Virus record (IMG/VR): IMGVR_UViG_3300047550_005317
Coordinates: 1-20,326 of that record
Length of the DNA stretch: 20,326 nt
Source: a virus
Strand: one strand, 5' to 3'
In this document: piece after piece, positions 4,354-20,191 of the stretch
Position numbering within the stretch: the first letter of the stretch is position 1
Layout of the letters: each line of letters starts with the position of its first letter
The notes under the pieces: model-generated
Told to the model about the DNA's origin: nothing
The model's input: only the letters and a program-made list of their open reading frames with translations
Databases searched by the model: none
Program-made: the position numbers and the translations under genes

Positions 4354-7300
4354 CTACCGGATTGTGCGGCGGATCATCTCGGCTTGTTCCCTCGCCATAC
4401 TGCGTTCGCTACGACGGAACCGATCCTCTGGATTGTTGTAAACATTCTGAATCGTGACGTTCATCCCTCCACTGGAACCACCCCCAGAGCCAGACTCCAT
4501 CGCCATAGTCAGCACGGGCAGGCGGCCAGTCTGGTTAACTGAAGCCAACAGGGCCGGCCCGAGGTTACGGGTAGCGGCGGCATTGAGGACAAACTCGCCC
4601 CGGTGAACAATGCCGGCTGGCTGGGACGGACTCCCAGGGCCAGTGTAGCCACCAGAAGCAAAGCCAAATAAGCCACCAAAGAGATTGCCAAGCATTCCCA
4701 GGAAACCACCGCCACCGCCTTTATTGGCTCCCGATAGGCCCTCGGTGGAGAGTCCCAGCATTTTGAATAGTTCCACTGTGGCCAACTGTGCCGCCAATTG
4801 GGAGACGGTTTGCAGGATAGAACGGGCCATGTTGCCAAAGGCATCCGACAGGCTCTGAGTACCCGATAGGACGTTCTCAAAGAAAGTAGATAACGCTCCT
4901 CGGCCAATATCCTCTAGTTCTTTGGCAAGGGAGCCGACTTGCTCTAGGGATTTAACCCGAGCATTGGAAATGGCGGTTTCCTGTTGAATGGCCCTGTCTT
5001 TTTCCTCGGTAGTGAGGTCTGTCCGTTGCTGGATTTCTAACAGGGTAAGCCTCAGGGCCAGTTGTTCCCGCAGGATTTCCAGCTTCTTCACCTCGGCGGC
5101 GTTCTGCTCCAATTGGGCCAGGGTGATGCGGCGATTCACCTCCTCTAGCTCCAGGCTGACGTTTTTCTGTTGGTCGGCAAGGGAAAGAGCAAAGTCTCCC
5201 CCAAAAGGAGCAGGGCCTGGCCCTCCAAAGCGCGGTAGGTTCCCTTCTCCGATTTGATAGCTGAGATTGCCGGGAAAACTGAGGGAGGATTGAGAGACGC
5301 TGGTTACTAGGCCCTTGCTGGCCTCGACAACGGCAGAGGTCAAAATCTCCTTGAGCGGGTCGAGGATCAGGATAGTGGAAGCCTGCTTACTGATACCTTC
5401 CAGCGTGGCACTGCCCTGGAAAATAGATCCAAAGATTTGACTACCAAATTGGGGAATCGTCGGGGTGGTGGTGCCGAAGCGGGGCAATCTCATTCTCGGG
5501 TCGAGGTAATATGCCCCTGGTTCCTGGCGTTGGGCCAGGGATAAATCCAGGTTAGCCATGGTTTGCACCTGACGCTTTTCCTCCCGGATGGCCCTGAGTT
5601 CTAGTGCGATGTTGCGGCTATCGGTGACACGTTCCCCTGCCTTCTGGCGGCGAATCTTATCGGCCTGCTGGGCCTGTAGGTTTTCCTCGGCAAAGGTCAA
5701 CTCCTGGAGCCGGATTCGGGCCTGTTGGGTGATGGTTTGGCTCTCGGTGAGCTTGCCCTGCTTTTTGTCTAGTTCTAGCTGGAATTTGAGCCGGTCTAGT
5801 TGTTGTTTCTGGATTTGCTGGCGTTCCGTGCTGGCCCGGTTAAAGGCCTCTTGCTGGATTTTATCTAGGCTTTCCTGTGCATTTTGTAATTGGCTAAGGG
5901 TCTCACTAGAGCTTTTAATCTGGCCCTCGACGCTCTCTTTGATTTTTAGGACGCTATCAGCATAGCCATAGCCAGCGCTTAGATTGCCTGTCCCTGCGTT
6001 ATAAGCGGCTAGGGCCTTGCGGGTATCCCCGTTAAACTTGACTAGCAATTTCTGGAAGTACCGAATCCCAATCTCAATGTTTTTCTGGGGGTCGTAGCGG
6101 TCTTCTTTCTGGTAGCCAGCCTCAACAGCGGCCCCCCAGCCTACCTGCATAGAGCCAACAAAAGGCCCGTAGGCGTTGGTGCTAGGTGATTGCAAGATTT
6201 TCCCTGTCCTCCGGTTCAGGTGGGTGATATTCTGGGGATTGCCTCCACCGGATTCTTTGGCGGCAATGGCGATGGCTGTTGATGGATCAAGTCCAAGCTG
6301 CCGGGCCGTGTCGTAGATTTGCTTGGCTATAGGGTTAGAGAATAGTGCGCTAGTTGATTGACTGGTTGAGGATGCGGCACTGAGGCTTGTCCCTAGAATT
6401 TGCCCCAGAGGGGATGATGTTATGCCCTGTTGCTTTAATCGTGGTAATGCCATTTTTAAAGCATCGACCACAGCCTGTTTGCTTTTAGTCGTTCCCGCAT
6501 TGCCCCTTGCATCTAGAGCATCGTGCAGTAATACAATATCCCCTCCTCCAGCTTTTAGTATTTGATTTGCAATTGATTGGGCGCTAGTAGAAGGCTTCCA
6601 GTCGTTGGTATCAACAGACCAGTATGCAGTGCTTAACCCCATTTGATTGACTCTTTGCTGGTATGCTTGCTGTCCGTTGTAGCTACCGGCACCATAGGGG
6701 AATCTAAACATAGTAGGAGTGTAGTCTGGGACAATCCCTTTCAAAACTCCCAATGTGTCCTCAATTTCCTTTTTCTGTTGAGCAGGAGTGATTTTTGTAA
6801 AATCGGGGTGAGTCATGCTGTGTACACCCAACTCATGCCCCTCGTTAACTATTCTCCGAATGATTTCCGGGTATTTCTCCGCTCGTTGTCCTACGACAAA
6901 AAACGTCGCCTTCATCCCATTTGCTTTTAGCTGATCCAATACTTTATTCGTCCAATTTGGATCTGGCCCATCGTCAAAGGTGAGTGCAATTTGATTTTTG
7001 GGAATTTTCTGTATCTGCTGACTAATATTGCTGGCATTAATGTTAATGGGATCTCTGCGACTGACTTGCTGATTGCTTGACTGTGACTTAGCTGGTTGAG
7101 TTGCTCCTGTTGGGACGGGTCGGCTGGTGGTGGTAGAACCTGACTGACCTCCATTTTTTAAGTATTTATCATCAAAAGCTACCACTAAATCCGATGCTCC
7201 GCTATTGGTTACCCAACTAGCAATTTTCTTGATTTGGTTTGGATCTGTGAAAACGAGGCACCCAGCACTTCCAGGCGTAATATTGTCTAAGTGAAATCCT

Positions 7301-9441
7301 ATTCCGCTTCGATTTGTTGAAAAAGTTGGAGTTAACCCAATCCATGCCGGGCCAATATTTCCACTAGGAAGCTTTTGTTGGTTATAACCGCTCAAGTTTT
7401 GATTTAATACGCTTTTGGCTTCTGCTGTGTTTATTTTCCATGTTCCCTCTGGAGGTGGAGCCATGCTTTTTGCAACGTTCGTTTTTCCCTTCCCAAAATC
7501 CCCCTGCGTTCTGCGTTGCCCTGTAGATCCGCCAATGAATGTATCAATGACTTTTCCATCCTTTACAAGGCTATATTGCAGAATATCCAATCCATTCGCG
7601 TCTTTCTGTCCGGTTCTGGTCGCTACAATTTTAGTCCCCTTGATTGATGAAAAATCAAATCCAGTGGAACCAGAGCTGTTACCTCCCCCATAGCCAGATG
7701 AGCGCATGGCCCGTTCTCCTGGGGTATCGGGAACACCGCCGCCCTGAGCCATGAAGTTCTGAGCTACAGTCTCGGCTACTTTTTGCCGATTACCTGGGAA
7801 CCACATTGGCATACCCCGAGCCTCCCAAGCTTTTGCCTCTGCCTCAAAGGCCGCCATATAAGCCTTGGCTTGGTCTTCTCCCATGGATTCGGCTATCTGA
7901 CGAGCGATCCGCTTCTCTGGGGAGAGCATCCACTCCCATCCCTCCCCGGCTTTGTTGATTTCCTTGCCCAGGGCCACCATTGCCTGAACAGCCAAGCCGA
8001 TAACTTTGACGAATCCCTCCATCGCCTCCACTGCATCCTGGATAGCTCTGGGATTCTCCTGGAGGTATTGCAACAGGCCTTTGGCTAGTTCCGTAACACT
8101 TTGCAGGGCCACTTTAACGCCAGAGGTCAACGCCTGATTTAGAGCCTTAGCAATGCCTGGGTTTTGGCTGATATAGTCCTTAAAGCTTTGGGCCTGAGCA
8201 TTTAGGTCTTTCCATATTTCCTGATTGTTGCCGAGGGGGTCTAGGGTCTGGACAATAATATCGAGCACTGCCGACAGGGCCGGACTAATGCCCTGATAGA
8301 TGCTGTTGTAGATCTTGGTGAAGGCATCATTCAGGTTAGACAATTTGACGGCAGTAGTAGCCCCCAATTTATCCATCAGCCCAAAGAAGCGGCCCCCTTC
8401 TGAGGTGACGGATCGGAGAACCTTGTCCACCTCCTCAAAGCTCAACTGTAAGCCCTCGCTGGAACCCTTGATCTGGCCCAGTTCCTTAGCGGATTTGCCC
8501 AACGCCTTGGCAATGTCCTCCATGCTCAGTCCAGCATTGAGCAATTGGTTAATATCCTGGCCCAGGGCCCGGCCCTGGTTCTTGATTTGGGTATAGACAA
8601 AGAGAAGCTGGCTCAGGGGTTTGTCGGCCCCGGCGGCGATTTCCCCAAGCATCTTGATCGTCGGGATTAGCTGATCCGCTGGGGTTTTGGTGGCTAATAA
8701 CTGCTTGGCGGCCTCGGTGACTTCGGGTAATTCAAAGGGCGTAGTTGCGGCAAAGTCCCGGACTTCCTTCATTACCCGTTTGGCCTCTTCGGCGGAACCC
8801 AGGAAGGTTTCAAAAGCCACTGCGGTTTTCTCCGTCTGTGCCCCGACTTGGATCACGCTCCCGGCTAATTGTTGCATCGAGGAGGCTAGATTCTGGATGA
8901 CGGAGGTGGCCAGGTTGGCCAGGACATTCTTAAAAATGCTGTAGCCTTCCCCAGCCTTTTGCCCTGCGATAGCCAGAGCATTTATTTCCTTGGTGGTTTC
9001 CTTGGCTGATTCTCCCGTCTGATCTAACTGCCGGTCAAGTTCTGCCAGTTTTTGGGTGAGCTTGGCTTGGGCATTAGCCACATCCTGAGCACTGGCCACA
9101 CCGCTGGACTTGATGGCATTGAAGGCAGAGATCGCCGCCTGCTTCTGGTTCTCAATGCTCTGGGAGGTCTTCACCCCCAACTCCCGGAAGGCATTATTAA
9201 CAACGGTATTCACCTGCTTAACCGCCGATTCCAAGTCTTTTGCGGCCTGTTGAGCGGCCCTGGGGTTCTCGGGAATTAGGGCACTACCGGCGGCCGCCTT
9301 CACACTCTGCTGGGCCTGGCGTACACTTTGCTGGGCCTGTTGGAGCGCATTCTCAAAACTGGCCCCGACCCGATTCATGGAGGCGATGGCCTCGTTAAAG
9401 CCTTCGGTGCTAAATTTGACGCTAAGAGTTCTGCTCGCCAT
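4354..9441 (-). CDS. Tail tape measure protein with three cell-wall enzyme domains
   Basis: A 1695-aa protein that should set tail length, fill the tail tube and help DNA cross the envelope. The N-terminal part (about 195-400) has the classical tape measure domain (FETFLGSAEEAKRVMKEVRD, TTPFELPEVTEAAKQLL). Residues 603-757 resemble an L,D-transpeptidase: H717 and SAGC ending at C728. Residues 816-1005 are a CE4 deacetylase: TFDDGP (D823, D824), HSMTH (H874, H878), RFPYG (R913), DTNDW (944-948) and LLHD (971-974), so all motifs are present. Residues 1035-1165 are a soluble lytic transglycosylase: KES with E1063, SMQV (1097-1100) and AYNAG (1146-1150). Coiled coils follow (1170-1300, 1420-1510), then a Gly-rich C-terminus with SGGYTGPG and IVHRGEFVLN, typical of these proteins. 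AGGA precedes the ATG by seven bases. Confidence 0.93.
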   Translation of the reverse strand: MASRTLSVKFSTEGFNEAIASMNRVGASFENALQQAQQSVRQAQQSVKAAAGSALIPENPRAAQQAAKDLESAVKQVNTVVNNAFRELGVKTSQSIENQKQAAISAFNAIKSSGVASAQDVANAQAKLTQKLAELDRQLDQTGESAKETTKEINALAIAGQKAGEGYSIFKNVLANLATSVIQNLASSMQQLAGSVIQVGAQTEKTAVAFETFLGSAEEAKRVMKEVRDFAATTPFELPEVTEAAKQLLATKTPADQLIPTIKMLGEIAAGADKPLSQLLFVYTQIKNQGRALGQDINQLLNAGLSMEDIAKALGKSAKELGQIKGSSEGLQLSFEEVDKVLRSVTSEGGRFFGLMDKLGATTAVKLSNLNDAFTKIYNSIYQGISPALSAVLDIIVQTLDPLGNNQEIWKDLNAQAQSFKDYISQNPGIAKALNQALTSGVKVALQSVTELAKGLLQYLQENPRAIQDAVEAMEGFVKVIGLAVQAMVALGKEINKAGEGWEWMLSPEKRIARQIAESMGEDQAKAYMAAFEAEAKAWEARGMPMWFPGNRQKVAETVAQNFMAQGGGVPDTPGERAMRSSGYGGGNSSGSTGFDFSSIKGTKIVATRTGQKDANGLDILQYSLVKDGKVIDTFIGGSTGQRRTQGDFGKGKTNVAKSMAPPPEGTWKINTAEAKSVLNQNLSGYNQQKLPSGNIGPAWIGLTPTFSTNRSGIGFHLDNITPGSAGCLVFTDPNQIKKIASWVTNSGASDLVVAFDDKYLKNGGQSGSTTTSRPVPTGATQPAKSQSSNQQVSRRDPININASNISQQIQKIPKNQIALTFDDGPDPNWTNKVLDQLKANGMKATFFVVGQRAEKYPEIIRRIVNEGHELGVHSMTHPDFTKITPAQQKKEIEDTLGVLKGIVPDYTPTMFRFPYGAGSYNGQQAYQQRVNQMGLSTAYWSVDTNDWKPSTSAQSIANQILKAGGGDIVLLHDALDARGNAGTTKSKQAVVDALKMALPRLKQQGITSSPLGQILGTSLSAASSTSQSTSALFSNPIAKQIYDTARQLGLDPSTAIAIAAKESGGGNPQNITHLNRRTGKILQSPSTNAYGPFVGSMQVGWGAAVEAGYQKEDRYDPQKNIEIGIRYFQKLLVKFNGDTRKALAAYNAGTGNLSAGYGYADSVLKIKESVEGQIKSSSETLSQLQNAQESLDKIQQEAFNRASTERQQIQKQQLDRLKFQLELDKKQGKLTESQTITQQARIRLQELTFAEENLQAQQADKIRRQKAGERVTDSRNIALELRAIREEKRQVQTMANLDLSLAQRQEPGAYYLDPRMRLPRFGTTTPTIPQFGSQIFGSIFQGSATLEGISKQASTILILDPLKEILTSAVVEASKGLVTSVSQSSLSFPGNLSYQIGEGNLPRFGGPGPAPFGGDFALSLADQQKNVSLELEEVNRRITLAQLEQNAAEVKKLEILREQLALRLTLLEIQQRTDLTTEEKDRAIQQETAISNARVKSLEQVGSLAKELEDIGRGALSTFFENVLSGTQSLSDAFGNMARSILQTVSQLAAQLATVELFKMLGLSTEGLSGANKGGGGGFLGMLGNLFGGLFGFASGGYTGPGSPSQPAGIVHRGEFVLNAAATRNLGPALLASVNQTGRLPVLTMAMESGSGGGSSGGMNVTIQNVYNNPEDRFRRSERSMAREQAEMIRRTIR

Positions 9442-11672: not shown

Positions 11673-11880
11673 TCCTTCCCTAAATTCTGAAAAGTTTTGG
11701 TATGTTTTGGGATGTTTTTATATCCATGAAAAAACAGCCAGGATGCGCTAAATCAAGGCTTTTGAGGGTTTTGGTGGAGTGATTAAAAGCTGATTCGTAA
11801 TCAGTTGGTCGTGGGTTCAAATCCCATCATCGGCTTGGCTTCCAGCCTCCAGCGTTTTCCCTTCCCTAATTCTTCCCTAG
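11664..11880. other. Putative attP: tRNA-like core with flanking arm-site repeats
   Basis: Paired CTTCCCTA motifs occur at 11664-11683 and again at 11861-11880, same orientation and same spacing within each pair, with one change in the shared 19 bases. Between them is a tRNA-Thr 3' fragment (11789-11835). Another short direct repeat, ATGTTTTGG/ATGTTTT, lies near 11702-11716. A core with repeats on both sides is the layout of an unrecombined attP (core plus integrase arm sites); in attL or attR one arm would be replaced by host DNA. The integrase gene starts about 1.6 kb away and reads towards the site. Binding of the repeats by integrase is inferred. Confidence 0.7.
11789..11835 (+). pseudogene. 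3' fragment of tRNA-Thr(CGT), att core
   Basis: It begins at the anticodon arm: GCTGA (11789-11793), loop TTCGTAA with anticodon CGT, TCAGT; then T-arm GTGGG-TTCAAAT-CCCAT (11811-11827), the acceptor 3' strand CATCGGC (11828-11834) and discriminator T. The matching 5' half (GCCGATG and a D-arm) is absent upstream, so this is not a working tRNA. Phages carry such 3' pieces to restore the host tRNA on integration. Confidence 0.85.
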
Positions 11881-12405: not shown

Positions 12406-13434
12406 TTATTTTAGCGCTTGCCATACGGCATCAAAATCAGAACGCTCGATCCATTTTAGGTAGTGCCGGTAGTGGACATCGAGGCTGTGGCCCATCCACC
12501 GGGCCGCAATGGCAGGACTGATGCCAAGCCGCGCAGAACGCACCGCATAGCCATCTCTGAGCGCATACGGGGAGAAATCTATCTTGTTGCGGTAGAAGGC
12601 GTTACAGACGGCCCTGCCGTTGTCGCTGTTGATGTTTGATTTTAGTTGGGGTGGATTGAAATTTTCCAACTTGAACCGCTCGGGCCAGTCGGGATGCAGG
12701 GGATACACCAGCCTGTCCTTGGTTTTGGTGTCTCGTAGCACGCTAATGATCGGGAACTGCTCTAAATCCAACTTGACGATCTCATGGTTTCTCAGTCCAT
12801 AGGCGGCCATCATGCCAAAGGCCCATTTCCAGCGGCCCTCTGGTAATCGTTCCCAGGTTTCTAATATCTCCTGGTCGGAGGGAATCCGTCTGTCCCCTGG
12901 GCTGTATTCGCCTTTCAGTGCTTTCCAATCCGCTGGCAGTTCTAGTTCTGCAAATTTGGCCAGCCGGGAGTAGGCGTTATGGTTCCTTTCTCTGGATCTT
13001 GTATGGGCTTCTGTCCTCAGCAATACCCGTTTAAGCACCTCCACCGTCAGCGGTTCATCCGGTGGTAACTGCCGGAAAGCTATCCCGTAATCGTTATAAA
13101 AGCATTTCTCCCGGTTAGGAGTCCTCTGTTTGGCCTGCCAGTGAGCTTCCTCCATTTCGTTGCACCATTGCTCAATCGTCTTTTGGGAAGCCTGGCCCTT
13201 GTTCTCTAATCCATCCCAGGTGAAGCGTTCCAGCAATATATCCGCTTCCAATGCCTGGGCCTTGGCTAATGCCAATTTAAGGCCCTGTTCTGTCGCAGGG
13301 CATCCCGTGGCAATATCAGTCTGCTTCTGGCCCTGGCCATTCCGATTGGGTAAAGTGGCCCTGAGGTATAGCCTATTTCCTTTCTGTCGAATCTTTACTC
13401 GGCTTAGTTTGCCATTGGCCTGGTCAATGTTCAC
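12406..13434 (-). CDS. int: Tyrosine recombinase (phage integrase)
   Basis: A 342-aa integrase that should join the phage into a host tRNA-Thr gene at the core next door. The C-terminal catalytic half shows R215 (GLRNHEI), a lysine around 237-239, R293 in PYALRDGYAVRS, H316 (WMGHS) and the nucleophile, probably Y325, nine residues after the His (Y322 is the alternative). The first His of the usual HxxR box is Y290, and the residue after R293 is Asp where many integrases have His. The N-terminal part (11-90) looks like an arm-binding domain and 85-170 like the core-binding helices. The start is GTG 13434, overlapping the stop of the upstream repressor as GTGA, so integrase translation is coupled to repressor translation. 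Confidence 0.92.
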   Translation of the reverse strand: MNIDQANGKLSRVKIRQKGNRLYLRATLPNRNGQGQKQTDIATGCPATEQGLKLALAKAQALEADILLERFTWDGLENKGQASQKTIEQWCNEMEEAHWQAKQRTPNREKCFYNDYGIAFRQLPPDEPLTVEVLKRVLLRTEAHTRSRERNHNAYSRLAKFAELELPADWKALKGEYSPGDRRIPSDQEILETWERLPEGRWKWAFGMMAAYGLRNHEIVKLDLEQFPIISVLRDTKTKDRLVYPLHPDWPERFKLENFNPPQLKSNINSDNGRAVCNAFYRNKIDFSPYALRDGYAVRSARLGISPAIAARWMGHSLDVHYRHYLKWIERSDFDAVWQALK

Positions 13435-13781
13435 GCAACAATCGCTTCATCGATTAACATCCGGGCCAGTCTTAATTTTTCTGCTGTAGGTAGTTTTTTT
13501 AATCTCTCAATCTCTCCATCGGCTGACAATGCGGCTGGCCTGTCAGCTTTGCGGCCGGTGCCATTGCTCTCGTCATCACTCAACTGGGACAGCAGATCAT
13601 CTAGCCCTACTCCCATGTAATCAGCCATTTTCTGCATGGCCGTAGTGCCAGGAATTACGCCTTCATCCCTCATGTAGCACCGCATATTTTGAGCCTTGAT
13701 GCCCATCTCCTGGGCCAAAGCGGCGGCGGTTTTGCCGTTGGCGATTGATTTTAAAAGTTTTGCTAATTTTGCTGTGTTCAT
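13431..13781 (-). CDS. HTH repressor-like protein B, paralogue of A
   Basis: A 116-aa protein with an N-terminal helix-turn-helix (about 8-65: KLAKLLKSIANGKTAAALAQ, MGIKAQNMRCYM, YMGVGLDDLLSQL) and a C-terminal helix (EKLRLARMLIDEA). It matches the upstream gene in order and spacing: MGI.AQ, YMG..LD.L and a closing Leu/Ala-rich helix. The pair therefore arose by duplication. A linker (about 72-88) separates the two parts. There is no peptidase-type C-terminal domain, so LexA-like self-cleavage is unlikely. It starts two bases after the upstream stop and ends overlapping the integrase start. The second recognition helix (QNMRCYMRDE) differs from that of A (QSVRNYISRP), so the target site may differ. 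Confidence 0.75.
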   Translation of the reverse strand: MNTAKLAKLLKSIANGKTAAALAQEMGIKAQNMRCYMRDEGVIPGTTAMQKMADYMGVGLDDLLSQLSDDESNGTGRKADRPAALSADGEIERLKKLPTAEKLRLARMLIDEAIVA

Positions 13782-13783
13782 GG

Positions 13784-14137
13784 CTAAACGTTATAGGCGG
13801 CACTGGCTTCTGCTAGCAGTCTGGCGCATAGATCAATGCGGCTTTTGGCATTAAGTCCTTTGGTTACGGCATAGGCATCATCAACCGTCACCACGGAGAT
13901 CCTGTTTTTGCTTGGCTTGGTTTTGATTTCTACGCCGATGCGAAAAGCCAGCTCATCTAAGGTAATTCCCATGTAATTAGCTATCTGGGCAAGCTTATCC
14001 AATCCGGGTTTACTACCAGGACGAGAGATGTAATTCCTAACAGACTGAGCAGGTATTCCCATTTTTTCAGCCAAATCCTCTGCTGAGCCATCGCCCATCA
14101 GTTCCTTAAGTAGATCAGAAAGCTTGTAAACGTCCAT
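13784..14137 (-). CDS. HTH repressor-like protein A (lysogeny side of switch)
   Basis: A 117-aa protein with an XRE/phage-type HTH at about 5-66 (KLSDLLKELMGDGSAEDLAE, MGIPAQSVRNYI, NYMGITLDELAFRI) and a C-terminal helix (SRIDLCARLLAEAS), perhaps for dimerisation. It faces the Cro-like gene across a 154-bp region with promoters in both directions, the usual place of a CI-type repressor. AAAGGAGC stands 8-9 bp before ATG 14137. It has its own promoter (14202-14231) and heads an operon with its paralogue and the integrase. The transcript leader contains ten consecutive G (14172-14181). Confidence 0.75.
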   Translation of the reverse strand: MDVYKLSDLLKELMGDGSAEDLAEKMGIPAQSVRNYISRPGSKPGLDKLAQIANYMGITLDELAFRIGVEIKTKPSKNRISVVTVDDAYAVTKGLNAKSRIDLCARLLAEASAAYNV

Positions 14138-15092: not shown

Positions 15093-15926
15093 GTGTCTGT
15101 AGGACAAAGCCAAGACAGAACTTATGGCAAGCATAAGCTACTGAACAAGATAACCGGGCGATTGGTAGGTGCATTTTCAACAAACCGAATCCGCTTCCTT
15201 AAGCCCCCGTTCATATTTATTGATTTGTGTGCAGGGGATGGAACGCCTAGCTACTACAGCAACTATTCCAGCCCGCAGATTCTAAAGAAGCATTGCGACT
15301 TCATGGAGCAGAAGGTAGGCCCAGACAGCTCGATTCTGATCCTGGTAGAAAAAGACCGGGCCACCTTCGACAAACTGCAAAAGGCATACCCAGCCACAAA
15401 AAACACTTATTTGATTCATGGTGACAGCAAAGATCCTTCTGTGATCGCTCAGATTGCAGAAATTATTAAAGCGCGGGCAAATCCTAACTCTCCATGCTTT
15501 GTCCACAACGATCCCAACAAGGTTAAGGATTGGGCTATCACCCAAGAATTGCTTCAAGTATTGCCTCGTTATACCACCAGCCTAACGACCATGGGGTGCA
15601 ACGTGGGGGGATTGAAACGGCTAGACCTGGAATCCCGAGGGAGTTGGTTTGACTATGTAAGGGTCTTGGTTCAGTCGGTGCAATCTATCAAGTGCCACGA
15701 TGCTTATCTGGCTTCATTGCGAAACGACAAAAGCCAATGGGCTTACCTGATCACTTGCCCTGCTAAGTGGGAAGAAGACATAGCCAGCGATGTGCAGAAG
15801 GCTTTCAAGGATTGGCCGCATGGCGTTGAAGGGGCATGGCTGTCGAGTCCAGTTCAATTCAATGCGCTGATTCGTATGTTGTTTCTGACCAAAAAAGAAT
15901 GGGAGGACGATCAGGATGTCGCATAG
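15093..15926 (+). CDS. tcmP: Three-Cys-motif partner protein (TcmP-like)
   Basis: A 277-aa protein starting at GTG 15093, six bases after a perfect AGGAGG. The N-terminal half has FIFIDLCAGDGTPSYY (residues 45-60), a class I methyltransferase-like glycine loop, followed by ILILVEKDRATFDKLQ, whose acidic strand end suits a nucleotide or SAM site. Next come CFVHNDPNKVKDW and SLTTMGCNVGGLKR. This matches the TcmP family, known mainly for lying next to the Gp37/Gp68 (DUF5131) three-Cys protein, exactly as here. Its biochemical function is not established to my knowledge. The stop overlaps the next start by 11 bp, so the two proteins are probably made together and act as partners. Confidence 0.78.
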   Translation: MSVGQSQDRTYGKHKLLNKITGRLVGAFSTNRIRFLKPPFIFIDLCAGDGTPSYYSNYSSPQILKKHCDFMEQKVGPDSSILILVEKDRATFDKLQKAYPATKNTYLIHGDSKDPSVIAQIAEIIKARANPNSPCFVHNDPNKVKDWAITQELLQVLPRYTTSLTTMGCNVGGLKRLDLESRGSWFDYVRVLVQSVQSIKCHDAYLASLRNDKSQWAYLITCPAKWEEDIASDVQKAFKDWPHGVEGAWLSSPVQFNALIRMLFLTKKEWEDDQDVA

Positions 15927-17622
15927 TCAACGAATGAAAGACCTTCTTGAAAAGGCAATTGAGCTTTATGGATTGGATGGAGTTCATCCGGCCGCTGAAA
16001 TAATGCCTTTCATGGGAGAGGACGAGTTTAATGGCTTGGTTGAAGATGCTGAAAAGAACGGTTTTCAAAACGCTGTCAAGGTTACAAAAGACCGGCTTTT
16101 GATTGATGGGCGCAACCGCATCTGTGCATCAATTGTCTTAGAAAAAGATGTCCGAATCGAAGAGTTCACACCGTCTGATCCGATTCAGTATGTGCTCTCT
16201 GAAAACCTGGAGCGCCGTCACCTAAGTTCACAGCAAAAAGCCGCGATTGCCATCGAAGCCGAGGATCTTTATCAACTGTTAGCCGAGCAGGCTAAACAGG
16301 CTCAGGGTACACGGGCAGACCTTTTAGTACAAGATGACGCAAACTTTAGTGAAAAAATTCACGAAAGTTCAAAACCGGAACCAAAACCCCAGGAACGTCG
16401 AACTGACACCAAACTAGCCAAGGCTTTTGGTACAAATCAGAATTATGTAGCCAAAGCCAAAAAGGTTAAAGACCATGCCCCGGAACTACTGCCAGAGGTA
16501 GCCGCTGGAAACGTGGACTTGAACGAAGCCGCTAAGGTGGCCGCCCAACGCAAGAAAGAAACCACTGGGCAATTGCAGGAAGTTGGGAGCAAAATCTCAA
16601 CCGGACTACAGCCCGATGTTAATGACTTTACCGCCGCCAAGGTTGATGGGAAGGTGACGATTATCCCAAAGCTTGCCTTGGAGCCAACGGCCGGCCCATC
16701 AAGCGAATCAGCCTTGCCTCCTGAGCCTGAATCTAACCCGATTGAAACCATCAATCAAAACGGTTACACGATTCACATTTGGCACAACAAACCCCAAAGC
16801 CCGCCATCGTTCAACACGGCTAATGAATCCATCGATTGGGCCTGGTCAACCTGGAATCCTGTTACTGGATGCCTTCATGGTTGCAATTATTGCTATGCAG
16901 AACGCATTGCCACCAATGAACGGATGGCCAAGGTTTACCCCATGGGATTTGAGCCGGTATTTCATCCCTACCGCCTTGATGCGCCCAAGAATGCCCATCA
17001 GTTTACTGAGCAGGAAATCATCAAGAAAGCTCAAGAACGCCGCCTTGATTTAGAGCAGGCCAAGCTATGGGCCAAGAATGTTTTTGTCTGCTCAATGGCG
17101 GATCTGTTTGGGAAATGGGTTCCCGATGACTGGATTATGCGAGTTTTTGACTCGGTGATTAAGTATGACCAATGGAACTATCTATTCCTGACCAAATATC
17201 CCCAACGCTTGCAGGAAATTGGAGAGAAGTTGGGCGGTAGTTTCCCTGATAACTGTTGGGTGGGGACAACGGTTGATGAACAGAAGCGGGTTCGCATTGC
17301 CCAAGAAGCTTTTGCCAACATCAAGGCCCCTGTTAAATGGCTATCTCTAGAGCCATTGCTGACAAACCTGGAATTTACCGATTTGGGGATGTTTGATCTA
17401 GTTGCAATAGGAGCCGAAACAGATGGGAGTCCATACTGCAACTCATGTGGACAAGTAGACCCTAAACGAATCAAATTTACTGCGCCTTGGGAGTGGGTCG
17501 AAAACATTCTCTGGCAAGCTCGAAAATCTGGCACTGCTTTTTACTTAAAAGAAAACCTGAAGTGCCGGCCTAAAGAACTGCCTTTTGTTAAATCCGTTGA
17601 AGTGGATGACGAGGAATGGTGA
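15916..17622 (+). CDS. ParB-domain / three-Cys (Gp37/Gp68, DUF5131) fusion protein
   Basis: A 568-aa fusion. Residues 20-120 are a ParB/Srx-type domain (LLIDGRNRICAS, 61-72; ENLERRHLSS, 97-106), followed by an HTH-like segment (TKLAKAFGTNQNYVAKAKKV, 165-184). Residues 215-300 form a variable linker. From about 305 the Gp37/Gp68 domain begins: DWAWSTWNPVTGC, then C319-x3-C323-x2-C326, the spacing of radical-SAM iron-sulfur sites. It continues with SMADLFGKWVPDDW (393-406), NYLFLTKYPQRL (421-432) and WLSLEPLL (475-482). A second pair, C508/C511, may bind metal. Thus DNA targeting (ParB/HTH) is joined to a possible radical enzyme. It overlaps TcmP upstream and the helicase-methylase downstream by 7 bp. 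Substrate and reaction are unknown. Confidence 0.82.
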   Translation: MSHSQRMKDLLEKAIELYGLDGVHPAAEIMPFMGEDEFNGLVEDAEKNGFQNAVKVTKDRLLIDGRNRICASIVLEKDVRIEEFTPSDPIQYVLSENLERRHLSSQQKAAIAIEAEDLYQLLAEQAKQAQGTRADLLVQDDANFSEKIHESSKPEPKPQERRTDTKLAKAFGTNQNYVAKAKKVKDHAPELLPEVAAGNVDLNEAAKVAAQRKKETTGQLQEVGSKISTGLQPDVNDFTAAKVDGKVTIIPKLALEPTAGPSSESALPPEPESNPIETINQNGYTIHIWHNKPQSPPSFNTANESIDWAWSTWNPVTGCLHGCNYCYAERIATNERMAKVYPMGFEPVFHPYRLDAPKNAHQFTEQEIIKKAQERRLDLEQAKLWAKNVFVCSMADLFGKWVPDDWIMRVFDSVIKYDQWNYLFLTKYPQRLQEIGEKLGGSFPDNCWVGTTVDEQKRVRIAQEAFANIKAPVKWLSLEPLLTNLEFTDLGMFDLVAIGAETDGSPYCNSCGQVDPKRIKFTAPWEWVENILWQARKSGTAFYLKENLKCRPKELPFVKSVEVDDEEW

Positions 17623-19868
17623 AATACACAGACTTCCTTTCCCAAAAAATAGCGAGGGTTAAGCCAGCCGGCTTTGAGGTCGCCGACGACCAACTCCCCG
17701 CCTTCTTATTTGACTACCAAAAATTTATCGTCAAATTGGCCCTGGCTAAGGGGAAATTCGCAGTCTTTGCCGGGACAGGCTTGGGCAAGACCGCTATCCA
17801 GTTGGTTTGGGCCGATGCCGTCCATCACCAGACTAATCAGCCAGTCCTCATTCTGGCACCCCTAGCAGTAGCCAAACAGACTGCCTTCGATGAATCGGCC
17901 AAGTTTGGCATCACGGTTCAATACTGCGAATCCTCGCTCGATGTCATCCATGGCATCAACATCACCAACTACGAGAAGCTAGGCAAGTTTGATTGCTCTG
18001 TATTCTCTGGGGTGGTACTGGATGAGAGTTCCATTCTCAAGAGCTTTACCGGGGCCATCAGAAGCCAGTTAATTGAAGCCTTTGCCCAAACTCCCTACCG
18101 CCTAGCTTGTTCTGCCACTCCCAGCCCCAACGATCACATGGAATTAGGCAACCATGCCGAGTTCCTGGGAATCATGACCAGGGTGGAAATGTTGGCCCAG
18201 TTCTTTGTCCACGATGGCGGCAACACCTCCGAATGGCGGTTAAAGAAACATGGGAAACAACCTTTCTGGGCCTGGCTGGCCGAATGGTCGGTAATGCTCC
18301 AAAAGCCTTCAGATTTGGGGTTCTCTGATGACAATTACAAATTGCCTCCCCTCCACCAGTATCAGCTTTTTATCGAGACAGGCATCCGGCGGGATGGTGA
18401 ACTGTTCGCCATGTCTGCAACAGGCCTGGCCGAACAGCGGCAGATAAAAAAGCAGACCTTGGCGGATCGGGTTTCCGCCATATCCAGCCTGGTCAACGCA
18501 TCAGATGAGCAGTGGATCGTCTGGTGTGAGACCAATGACGAAAGCGCGGCTCTGACAGCGGCTATTCCCGATGCCGTCGAGGTTAAGGGGGCCGATACCG
18601 AGAAGCACAAGGAGCAATCTGCCATCAACTTTGCCCATGGGGCCATCCGGGTACTGGTCAGCAAAGCCGCGATCTATGGGTTTGGGATGAATTGGCAAAA
18701 CTGCCACAACATCGCCTTTGTCGGGATGAGCAACTCATTTGAGTTGACCTACCAAGCCATCCGCCGATGCTATCGCTTTGGCCAGACCCAGCCTGTCAAT
18801 GTTTACTTTGCCGTTACCGATACCTGCGGCTCCATTGTCCAGAACATGGAACGCAAAGAGAAACAGTTCCAGGAAATGCTGGCCCAGCTCATTGCCCACA
18901 TGGGCCAGCAGGACTATTCGCAAACCTTACGTCAACGAAATACCTACATGGAAGACCGCAAGATTGGCGAAAACTATCAGATATATCTGGGGGATTGCGT
19001 CATGCACCTGTTAGGCATGGCCCCGGAGTCCATTGACTTCTCAGTGTTTAGTCCCCCATTCGCATCTTTGTACACCTACAGCAATTCAGAAAGGGACATG
19101 GGAAATGCCCGCTCTGATGAGGAGTTCCTGAATCACTTTGATTTTTTGGTGCATGAACTGTACCGAGTGCTGAAGCCGGGATGCCTGGTATCCTTTCACG
19201 TTCAAAACTTGCCAGCTCAAATCCAGAAGGATGGCTACTACGGACGCAAGGATTTGAGAGGCGATTTGATCCGCTCCTTTGAAAAGCAAGGATTCGTCTA
19301 TTACTCCGAGGTGACGATCTGGAAAGATCCCGTCACCCAAATGCAACGGACAAAGGCCTTAGGACTGCTCCATAAGCAAGTCAAAAAGGACTCAAGCAAG
19401 AGCCACCAAGGCATGGCGGATTACCTCGTCACCATGCGGAAACCAGGGGAACGCTCCGAGCCTGTTGCTGGAATGTTTGATGCCTACTACGGCACCAATG
19501 CTATCCCGCCAACGGATGCCACCCATACCAGCATCGAGATCTGGCAACGTTACGCCTCTCCCGTCTGGATGGACATTGACCAATCCGATACTCTCCAATT
19601 CCGGGAGGCCCGCCATAGCGACGATGAACGCCATATCTGTCCGTTGCAATTGACCGTTATCCGTCGGGCCCTGCAATTGTGGAGTAACCCTGGTGACACC
19701 ATCCTGTCTCCCTTTGCTGGCATTGGTTCCGAGGGCTATGTGGCCCTGGAGATGGGGCGCAAATTTGTGGGCATCGAGCTTAAGGAGTCCTATTGGCAGG
19801 TGGCTTGCAAGAACCTCGATTTTGTCGAGAACAAGCCCAAGCAATTAGCTCTGTTGGAGGCGGTATGA
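17616..19868 (+). CDS. Helicase-DNA methyltransferase fusion
   Basis: A 750-aa protein. The N-terminal 430 residues are an SF2/SNF2-like helicase: Walker A GTGLGKT (53-59), LDES with D136/E137, SAT (166-168) and motif VI AIRRCYRFGQ (381-390). The C-terminal 300 residues are an amino-methyltransferase of the type with the catalytic motif first: SPPF (479-482), VLKPGCLVSFHV (518-529), then the SAM site LSPFAGIGSEG (697-707) and KFVGIEL. SPPF points to N4-cytosine or N6-adenine methylation. No nuclease motif is visible in this protein or its neighbours, so this is not an ordinary restriction system. It could mark phage DNA against host restriction or act with the TcmP/ParB proteins. ATG overlaps the upstream stop by 7 bp. 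Confidence 0.88.
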   Translation: MVKYTDFLSQKIARVKPAGFEVADDQLPAFLFDYQKFIVKLALAKGKFAVFAGTGLGKTAIQLVWADAVHHQTNQPVLILAPLAVAKQTAFDESAKFGITVQYCESSLDVIHGINITNYEKLGKFDCSVFSGVVLDESSILKSFTGAIRSQLIEAFAQTPYRLACSATPSPNDHMELGNHAEFLGIMTRVEMLAQFFVHDGGNTSEWRLKKHGKQPFWAWLAEWSVMLQKPSDLGFSDDNYKLPPLHQYQLFIETGIRRDGELFAMSATGLAEQRQIKKQTLADRVSAISSLVNASDEQWIVWCETNDESAALTAAIPDAVEVKGADTEKHKEQSAINFAHGAIRVLVSKAAIYGFGMNWQNCHNIAFVGMSNSFELTYQAIRRCYRFGQTQPVNVYFAVTDTCGSIVQNMERKEKQFQEMLAQLIAHMGQQDYSQTLRQRNTYMEDRKIGENYQIYLGDCVMHLLGMAPESIDFSVFSPPFASLYTYSNSERDMGNARSDEEFLNHFDFLVHELYRVLKPGCLVSFHVQNLPAQIQKDGYYGRKDLRGDLIRSFEKQGFVYYSEVTIWKDPVTQMQRTKALGLLHKQVKKDSSKSHQGMADYLVTMRKPGERSEPVAGMFDAYYGTNAIPPTDATHTSIEIWQRYASPVWMDIDQSDTLQFREARHSDDERHICPLQLTVIRRALQLWSNPGDTILSPFAGIGSEGYVALEMGRKFVGIELKESYWQVACKNLDFVENKPKQLALLEAV

Positions 19869-20191
19869 AGCAGATTATCGCCTTGGCACTGGGACTTAGT
19901 TTCCTACTGCCTGAAATGGCCCAGGCAGGCCAGGCCAGTGCTACCTACTATGGCCCTGGCTTCCACGGCAAAAAGATGGCCAACGGCAAACGATTCAATC
20001 AGCACGGCATGACAGCGGCCCATCCATCCCTGCGATTGGGAACCCGGATCAGAGTCCGTTACAAAAGCCGATCTGTGGTGGTACGGGTAACAGATCGTTG
20101 CCGCTGTTCCCTGGATTTATCTAAGGCGGCCTTCCGCCGACTGGCCCCGTTGAGCAAGGGCCGAATCAGAGTCCGCTATTCCCGAATTTGA
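19865..20191 (+). CDS. Secreted RlpA-like (double-psi beta-barrel) protein
   Basis: A 108-aa precursor starting in an ATGA overlap with the methylase stop. Residues 1-21 are a clear signal peptide (MKQIIALALGLSFLLPEMAQ, cleavage after AQA). The mature part is a minimal RlpA barrel: ATYYGPGFHGKKMANG (26-41), MTAAHPSLRLGT with H53, VTDRC with D77, and LDLSKAAF. RlpA-type proteins are lytic transglycosylases or inactive wall-binding relatives. The usual DRGPF is DRCRC here (C79, C81), as in some expansin-like barrels, so activity is uncertain. There is no SPOR domain. On a phage it could be a secreted wall-degrading lysis factor or alter the host wall early. Confidence 0.8.
   Translation: MKQIIALALGLSFLLPEMAQAGQASATYYGPGFHGKKMANGKRFNQHGMTAAHPSLRLGTRIRVRYKSRSVVVRVTDRCRCSLDLSKAAFRRLAPLSKGRIRVRYSRI

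What the first reader, a model, noticed from the sequence alone, without database searches (positions are those of the whole stretch)
15093..19868. TcmP / ParB-three-Cys / helicase-methylase trio as a possible uncharacterised DNA-directed system
Three overlapping genes join a TcmP-like protein, a ParB-HTH protein fused to a radical-SAM-like Cys domain, and a helicase fused to an amino-methyltransferase. Overlaps of 11 and 7 bp suggest coupled production. TcmP and Gp37/Gp68 are known neighbours with no settled function. The added ParB domain and helicase-methylase suggest the target is DNA, perhaps base modification or protection against host restriction. The substrate is inference.
Basis: partly seen in the sequence, partly recalled or inferred. 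Interest (0 to 1): 0.8.

Follow-up and report, generated by a model that had tools for sequence, protein, structure and literature searches.

The report
TcmP and ParB-fused radical-SAM gene pair
A phage carries a conserved two-gene module: a methyltransferase-like protein, and a DNA-binding ParB clamp joined to a radical enzyme built like a DNA-repair lyase. It probably changes bases in nucleic acid, and its third neighbour, a helicase-methylase, is a common phage gene that is not part of the module.

Summary
The three genes and both overlaps (11 and 7 bp) are real. They are not one trio. TcmP plus ParB-DUF5131 is the unit. Of 41 viral ParB-fused DUF5131 genes with enough upstream sequence, 40 have a TcmP-like gene directly before them on the same strand. 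All 19 strong TcmP genes sampled in gammaproteobacteria adjoin a DUF5131 gene, in three different arrangements. The helicase-methylase is a common phage family and directly follows the pair in 1 of 77 pair loci.

Fold and profile evidence links TcmP to RlmJ (rRNA m6A methyltransferase). Its catalytic Lys and Asp are kept, but the DPPY motif has become DPN. DUF5131 resembles spore photoproduct lyase (SPL): it keeps the CX3CX2C cluster, the following Tyr and, most likely, SPL's hydrogen-donor Cys. The N-terminus is a ParB domain with CTP-motif residues and an HTH.

Best reading: a two-enzyme nucleobase-modifying (or lesion-reversing) module that, in this phage form, is carried to DNA by a ParB clamp. 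The substrate is not shown. The parent pair is already catalogued as the untested defence candidates PDC-M30 and PDC-M41; the ParB-fused phage form is a new variant.

The parts
15093..15926 (+). TcmP-like protein, RlmJ-type methyltransferase fold; K13, H14, S60, E86, D111 and D140-P-N align with RlmJ K18, H19, S100, E118, D143 and D164-P-P
15916..16605 (+). ParB N domain with CTP-motif residues (DGRNRICA, ENLERR) and ParB-type HTH, residues 1-230 of the fusion
16771..17622 (+). DUF5131 (Gp37/Gp68) radical-SAM domain, residues 286-568; C319/C323/C326 cluster, Y327, C392 (aligned by inference with SPL C140), T426-K427
15916..15926 (+). 11-bp overlap of TcmP and ParB-DUF5131 genes; a 4-bp overlap is the commonest spacing in relatives
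17616..19868 (+). SF2 (SNF2-like) helicase fused to beta-type N4/N6 methyltransferase (SPPF), common phage family; neighbour, not a conserved member of the module
12406..14137 (-). integrase-like gene and two HTH regulator genes, divergent from the pair: lysogeny control region of a temperate phage (by sequence inspection; Pfam support only weak HTH)
   Evidence: similar integrase-like gene beside the pair in L086

Best explanation
Genes 1 and 2 are a two-enzyme module that chemically alters a nucleobase, most likely in DNA. The ParB-HTH part of gene 2 binds DNA, probably as a CTP-dependent clamp, and carries an SPL-like radical-SAM domain. That domain makes a 5'-deoxyadenosyl radical, abstracts a hydrogen from a base and quenches the product radical through C392 and Y327. 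TcmP, an RlmJ-like SAM-dependent enzyme with an altered motif IV, works on the same or the adjacent base, so that transfer and radical steps are coupled. The result would be a modified base, or a reversed lesion, during phage replication. Shown here: gene pairing, folds by prediction, conserved catalytic residues, fused DNA-binding modules. Inferred: enzyme activity, DNA as the substrate, order of steps, biological benefit.
For: Pairing: 40 of 41 viral ParB-fused genes have TcmP directly upstream, and 19 of 19 gammaproteobacterial TcmPs adjoin DUF5131 in three arrangements. TcmP: RlmJ is the top fold (Z 15.0, 210 residues, 3.3 A), profile match E 2e-10, K13 and D140 in 61 of 61 sequences; in RlmJ K18 and D164 are essential (PMC3814359). 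DUF5131: six SPL entries lead at Z 14.3-14.7, next RlmN at 11.9; Cys triad and Y327 in 61 of 61, C392 in 56 of 61, T426-K427 in 61 of 61; the spacing C to TK is 34 residues against 33 in wild-type SPL 4fhc; C141 and Y99 form SPL's radical path (PMC3742179). ParB residues G65, R68, A71, N97, R100 conserved; ParB replaced by DUF3102 or HTH_38 modules in relatives. Neighbours are DnaB, primase-polymerase, RecT, nucleases and DNA methylases.
Against: No activity, substrate or modified base is shown. RlmJ and RlmN, near fold relatives, act on RNA. DUF5131 without ParB, but with TcmP, is common on chromosomes and plasmids. The sequence profile match of DUF5131 to SPL covers only 18-31 columns confidently, and the C392-C140 match rests on hand alignment, not on superposed coordinates. 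None of the 25 commonest neighbour families is a base-hypermodification gene.
Confidence: 0.5

Rival explanations
1. The pair modifies RNA (tRNA or rRNA), for example to protect translation during infection; the ParB part only regulates or tethers.
For: TcmP's best fold is the rRNA enzyme RlmJ and DUF5131's second-best is RlmN. The pair also occurs without ParB on chromosomes and plasmids.
Against: Phage members repeatedly acquire DNA-binding N-terminal modules (ParB, DUF3102, HTH). The best radical-SAM fold match is the DNA enzyme SPL.
Confidence: 0.2
2. The pair is an anti-phage or superinfection-exclusion system carried by a temperate phage (related to PDC-M30/M41).
For: PADLOC lists DUF5131 as PDC-M30B/M41B and TcmP as PDC-M30A/M41A. 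PDC-M30 occurred in 32 of 100 P. aeruginosa strains, 68.8% of them phage-resistant (PMC10855318). Hna and TcmP are neighbours in S. meliloti (PMC12445080), and a type ISP R-M gene overlaps TcmP in Leptospira p74.
Against: The listing rests on guilt by embedding and is untested; resistance in that survey correlates with many systems. The window's TcmP misses the PADLOC models. In phages the pair lies by replication genes. This is a biological role and is compatible with the chemistry of the best explanation.
Confidence: 0.2
3. All three genes, with the helicase-methylase, are one DNA-directed system.
For: 7-bp overlap of genes 2 and 3. A helicase is near the pair in a few unrelated places: pKLC102, Leptospira p74, L248, L090, L091.
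Against: The helicase-methylase directly follows 1 of 77 pairs; other SF2 helicases lie within 1.5 kb downstream of 3 more. The closest relatives have a Dam methylase there or lack gene 3. Full-length gene 3 relatives are found in 304 phage records, while no annotated phage record has a window-type TcmP by tblastn.
Confidence: 0.06

Closest known systems
TcmP with phage Gp37/Gp68 (DUF5131) pair; PADLOC candidates PDC-M30 and PDC-M41
   Same: Same two families side by side, often overlapping genes
   Different: DUF5131 here carries a ParB-HTH N-terminus, and TcmP is divergent (17 bits with TIGR04474, no PADLOC hit). The plasmid pairs examined mostly lack ParB.
Spore photoproduct lyase (SplB, PF20903)
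   Same: Predicted fold, CX3CX2C, Tyr after the third Cys, likely hydrogen-donor Cys, TK strand
   Different: Not hit by the SPL model; shorter; fused to ParB; nearly always with TcmP in this clade; no link to spores
RlmJ (23S rRNA m6A2030 methyltransferase, PF04378)
   Same: Fold over 210 residues; catalytic Lys and Asp; SAM-binding Ser, Glu and Asp
   Different: DPPY motif IV is DPN; helical insert shorter; Y4 and H6 of the N-tail not recognised; not hit by PF04378
ParB/Spo0J/KorB CTPases
   Same: N domain with G-x-x-R-x-x-A and N-x-x-R motifs, followed by HTH
   Different: Dimerisation domain replaced by a radical-SAM domain; no ParA or parS seen
Phage helicase-methylase (phrog_16; S-CBS3 gp40)
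   Same: Gene 3 matches over its full length
   Different: Nothing notable; ordinary member

Membership tests
TcmP (TIGR04474) | score over curated cut-off 53 bits | tested here: not met
   17.2 bits; relatives in the same alignment reach E 1e-45, so it is a divergent homologue
TcmP (TIGR04474) | adjacent three-Cys-motif (radical-SAM-like) partner gene | tested here: met
   DUF5131 overlaps it by 11 bp; 40 of 41 in relatives
DUF5131 / Gp37-Gp68 (PF07505) | over gathering score | tested here: met
   136 bits against 28.9
PDC-M30/PDC-M41 (PADLOC) | both A and B models hit | tested here: not met
   B hit (E 4e-36 and 2e-38), A not hit by the window protein; up to 12 relatives hit one PDC-M30A model
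PDC-M30/PDC-M41 (PADLOC) | anti-phage activity | not testable with these tools
   only a correlation in PMC10855318
Spore photoproduct lyase | PF20903 match | tested here: not met
   no hit up to E 1
Spore photoproduct lyase | SPL-like radical-SAM fold | tested here: met
   predicted model: Z 14.7, 232-235 residues, 3.9-4.1 A, well above the next fold
Spore photoproduct lyase | cluster Cys, Y98 and C140 equivalents | tested here: inconclusive
   cluster and Y327 in 61 of 61; C392 in 56 of 61 at matching spacing, but no superposed coordinates
RlmJ | PF04378 match and DPPY motif | tested here: not met
   no Pfam hit; DPN in the window, N at that place in 50 of 61
RlmJ | fold and catalytic K18/D164 | tested here: met
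ParB CTPase clamp | CTP-binding motif residues and HTH | tested here: met
   PDB ParB profile hits E 4e-11
ParB CTPase clamp | CTP binding and hydrolysis, parS site | not testable with these tools
   needs biochemistry
phage helicase-methylase (phrog_16) | full-length match | tested here: met
   E 6e-72 over 28-748; 304 phage records cover 80% or more

The most novel reading that the evidence does not exclude
A ParB CTP clamp that carries an SPL-like radical-SAM enzyme, coupled to an RlmJ-related transferase, installs a previously unknown modified base in phage DNA: a radical route to DNA modification loaded by a clamp.
Probability: 0.28. Interest if true: 0.88.

Novelty: new variant of a known kind. 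Interest (0 to 1): 0.52.

Why it matters
TcmP and Gp37/Gp68 pairs are widespread on phages, plasmids and chromosomes, are counted as candidate defence systems in genome surveys, and have no function known to me or found in the held literature. Placing TcmP with RlmJ and DUF5131 with SPL, and finding the clamp-fused form, names the residues to mutate and the molecules to examine (nucleosides of DNA first, RNA second). This makes an open question directly testable.

Tried and rejected
Trio as a unit: rejected by the neighbourhood survey. The window TcmP found no relative in annotated phages by tblastn and only 2 plasmids; a first single-sequence viral scan found none, and profile queries solved this. 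Global hhalign of DUF5131 with SPL gave no usable full alignment, so the C392-C140 match is by spacing and motif only. Thymidine-hypermodification genes near the pair: none among the 25 commonest neighbour families. Literature: no paper on DUF5131, Gp37/Gp68 or TcmP function in the held library. The Mantel correlation of TcmP and DUF5131 distances (r 0.61, 0 of 2000 permutations) fits co-inheritance and is not proof of function. PADLOC hits to ZorA and HEC-06 are weak and were discarded. A plasmid partition role was considered: no ParA or parS was seen, but this was not searched in depth.

Full report
Observation. The window is a whole IMG/VR record of 20,326 bases from a temperate phage: tape measure, baseplate and NlpC/P60-like genes on the minus strand, an integrase-like gene and two HTH regulators at 12406-14137 (by inspection), then rightward genes. 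The three genes and overlaps of 11 and 7 bp are as described. Gene 2 is ParB-HTH plus DUF5131, and gene 3 is helicase plus methylase. Gene 1 is below the NCBIfam TcmP cut-off (17 against 53 bits), but belongs with the family by iterated profile and fold.

Which genes belong together. Viral contigs were collected by DUF5131 alone and scanned with iterated profiles. ParB-fused DUF5131 genes with at least 900 bp upstream number 41; 40 have TcmP directly upstream on the same strand. Among viral DUF5131 genes not recognised as ParB-fused, 18 of 31 with room do. Over the 77 non-redundant pair loci (from all scans), the commonest spacing is a 4-bp overlap. Two Streptomyces plasmids have the same pair. 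In an independent sample of gammaproteobacteria ascertained by the TcmP model, all 19 genomes over the cut-off have, at the locus read, TcmP adjoining DUF5131: TcmP first in 9, DUF5131 first in 5, convergent in 5 (from the coordinates). Adjacency that survives rearrangement argues for a functional link, not just operon inheritance.

Gene 3. Only the window has a helicase-methylase directly after the pair; three further loci have another SF2 helicase within 1.5 kb downstream. The closest relative L086 (TcmP 75%, fusion 72%) has a Dam methylase there, and L002 lacks gene 3, with the terminase module following. Gene 3 itself matches over 80% or more of its length in 304 phage records; its best match, S-CBS3 gp40, has neither TcmP nor DUF5131 annotated around it. 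Neighbours of the pair are replication and recombination genes (DnaB_C, AAA_25, Prim-Pol, RecT, nucleases) and DNA methylases (N6_N4 in 8, C5 in 4 of 96 scanned). Gene 3 is best read as an occupant of this early region.

TcmP. The AlphaFold model (pLDDT 93) finds RlmJ first by Foldseek (E 2e-9) and by VIA-align (Z 15.0 over 210 residues, 3.3 A; the next family, MnmM, at 12.7). Profile alignment gives E 2e-10, probability 97. The TIGR04474 model itself weakly hits genes at the same places as RlmJ in several gammaproteobacteria. Aligned residues: K13-K18, H14-H19, S60-S100, E86-E118, D111-D143, D140-D164. RlmJ K18 and D164 are essential, and S100, E118, D143 and H19 hold the cofactor (PMC3814359). 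K13 and D140 are in 61 of 61 sequences; motif IV is DPN-like (N in 50 of 61), not DPPY. So TcmP is likely an active SAM-dependent enzyme on a nucleobase with a changed base pocket; that last step is inference.

DUF5131. The model (pLDDT 86; pTM 0.56 reflects loosely placed domains) gives six SPL entries at Z 14.3-14.7, then RlmN at 11.9. Three cluster Cys and Y327 are in 61 of 61; C392 in 56 of 61; T426-K427 in 61 of 61. Wild-type SPL 4fhc reads EAACTSDIVG...LRFVTKY; the Cys is Ala in the C140A entry and Ser in the C140S entry. DUF5131 reads VFVCSMADLFG...LFLTKYP, 34 against 33 residues from Cys to Thr. In SPL this Cys gives the hydrogen atom and the Tyr after the third cluster Cys continues the radical path (PMC3742179). 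The correspondence is inferred from fold, motif and spacing; the profile aligner places only the cluster with confidence. Clostridial SPLs lack this Cys and are reported to use another one (PMC5368176), so its loss in 5 of 61 is not fatal.

ParB part. ParB chains of the PDB match the family profile at E 4e-11 to 1e-6. The residues of the CTP motifs (G65, R68, A71, N97, R100) are kept in nearly all members that have the domain. In pair members without ParB the N-terminus holds DUF3102, HTH_38 or unassigned modules. Repeated fusion of DNA-binding modules to one catalytic domain is the main argument that the phage form works on DNA.

What is known. The pair is named in databases (three-Cys-motif partner, phage Gp37/Gp68) and annotated on plasmids of several phyla. 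PADLOC holds it as PDC-M30 and PDC-M41. PDC-M30 was in 32 of 100 P. aeruginosa strains, 68.8% of them phage-resistant (PMC10855318), a correlation only. No functional study was found in the held library.

Verdict. A real conserved pair in a new, ParB-fused variant. The chemistry can be predicted in outline, the substrate cannot. Base modification or lesion reversal on DNA is my best reading at 0.5; RNA modification and a defence role are the rivals, and the defence role is compatible with either chemistry.

Noticed in passing
window 4354-9441 (-): A 1,695-aa tape measure protein holds a NodB-type polysaccharide deacetylase domain (residues 814-935, E 3e-36) and a transglycosylase SLT domain (1046-1156). 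A deacetylase inside a tape measure looks unusual.
   Followed up: partly
window 19865-20191 (+): Small RlpA-like double-psi beta-barrel protein (DPBB_1, E 3e-20) directly after gene 3.
   Followed up: no
L002:5967-6374: An extra stand-alone ParB-like gene sits between TcmP and ParB-DUF5131, overlapping both; it looks like a partial duplicate of the fusion's N-terminus.
   Followed up: no
L234, L248, L230, L232: A type ISP R-M gene overlaps TcmP in Leptospira p74; a 1,628-aa helicase-like protein precedes DUF5131/TcmP in L248; a DEAD/DEAH helicase precedes the pair in pKLC102; Hna lies by TcmP in S. meliloti. A loose helicase link in some lineages.
   Followed up: partly
G133:C2:89126, G081:C35:182676, G112, G124: NCBIfam TcmP model TIGR04474 weakly hits genes at the RlmJ places of gammaproteobacteria (compare), so TcmP and RlmJ look related by an independent model.
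   Followed up: yes
L026, L032, L034, L066: In gut Firmicutes, DUF5131 without TcmP sometimes lies near a helicase-methylase fusion of 833-855 aa (20 bp away in L034).
   Followed up: no
window 11757-11836 (+): tRNA-Thr (CGT) about 570 bp from the integrase-like gene; a possible attachment site or carried tRNA.
   Followed up: no
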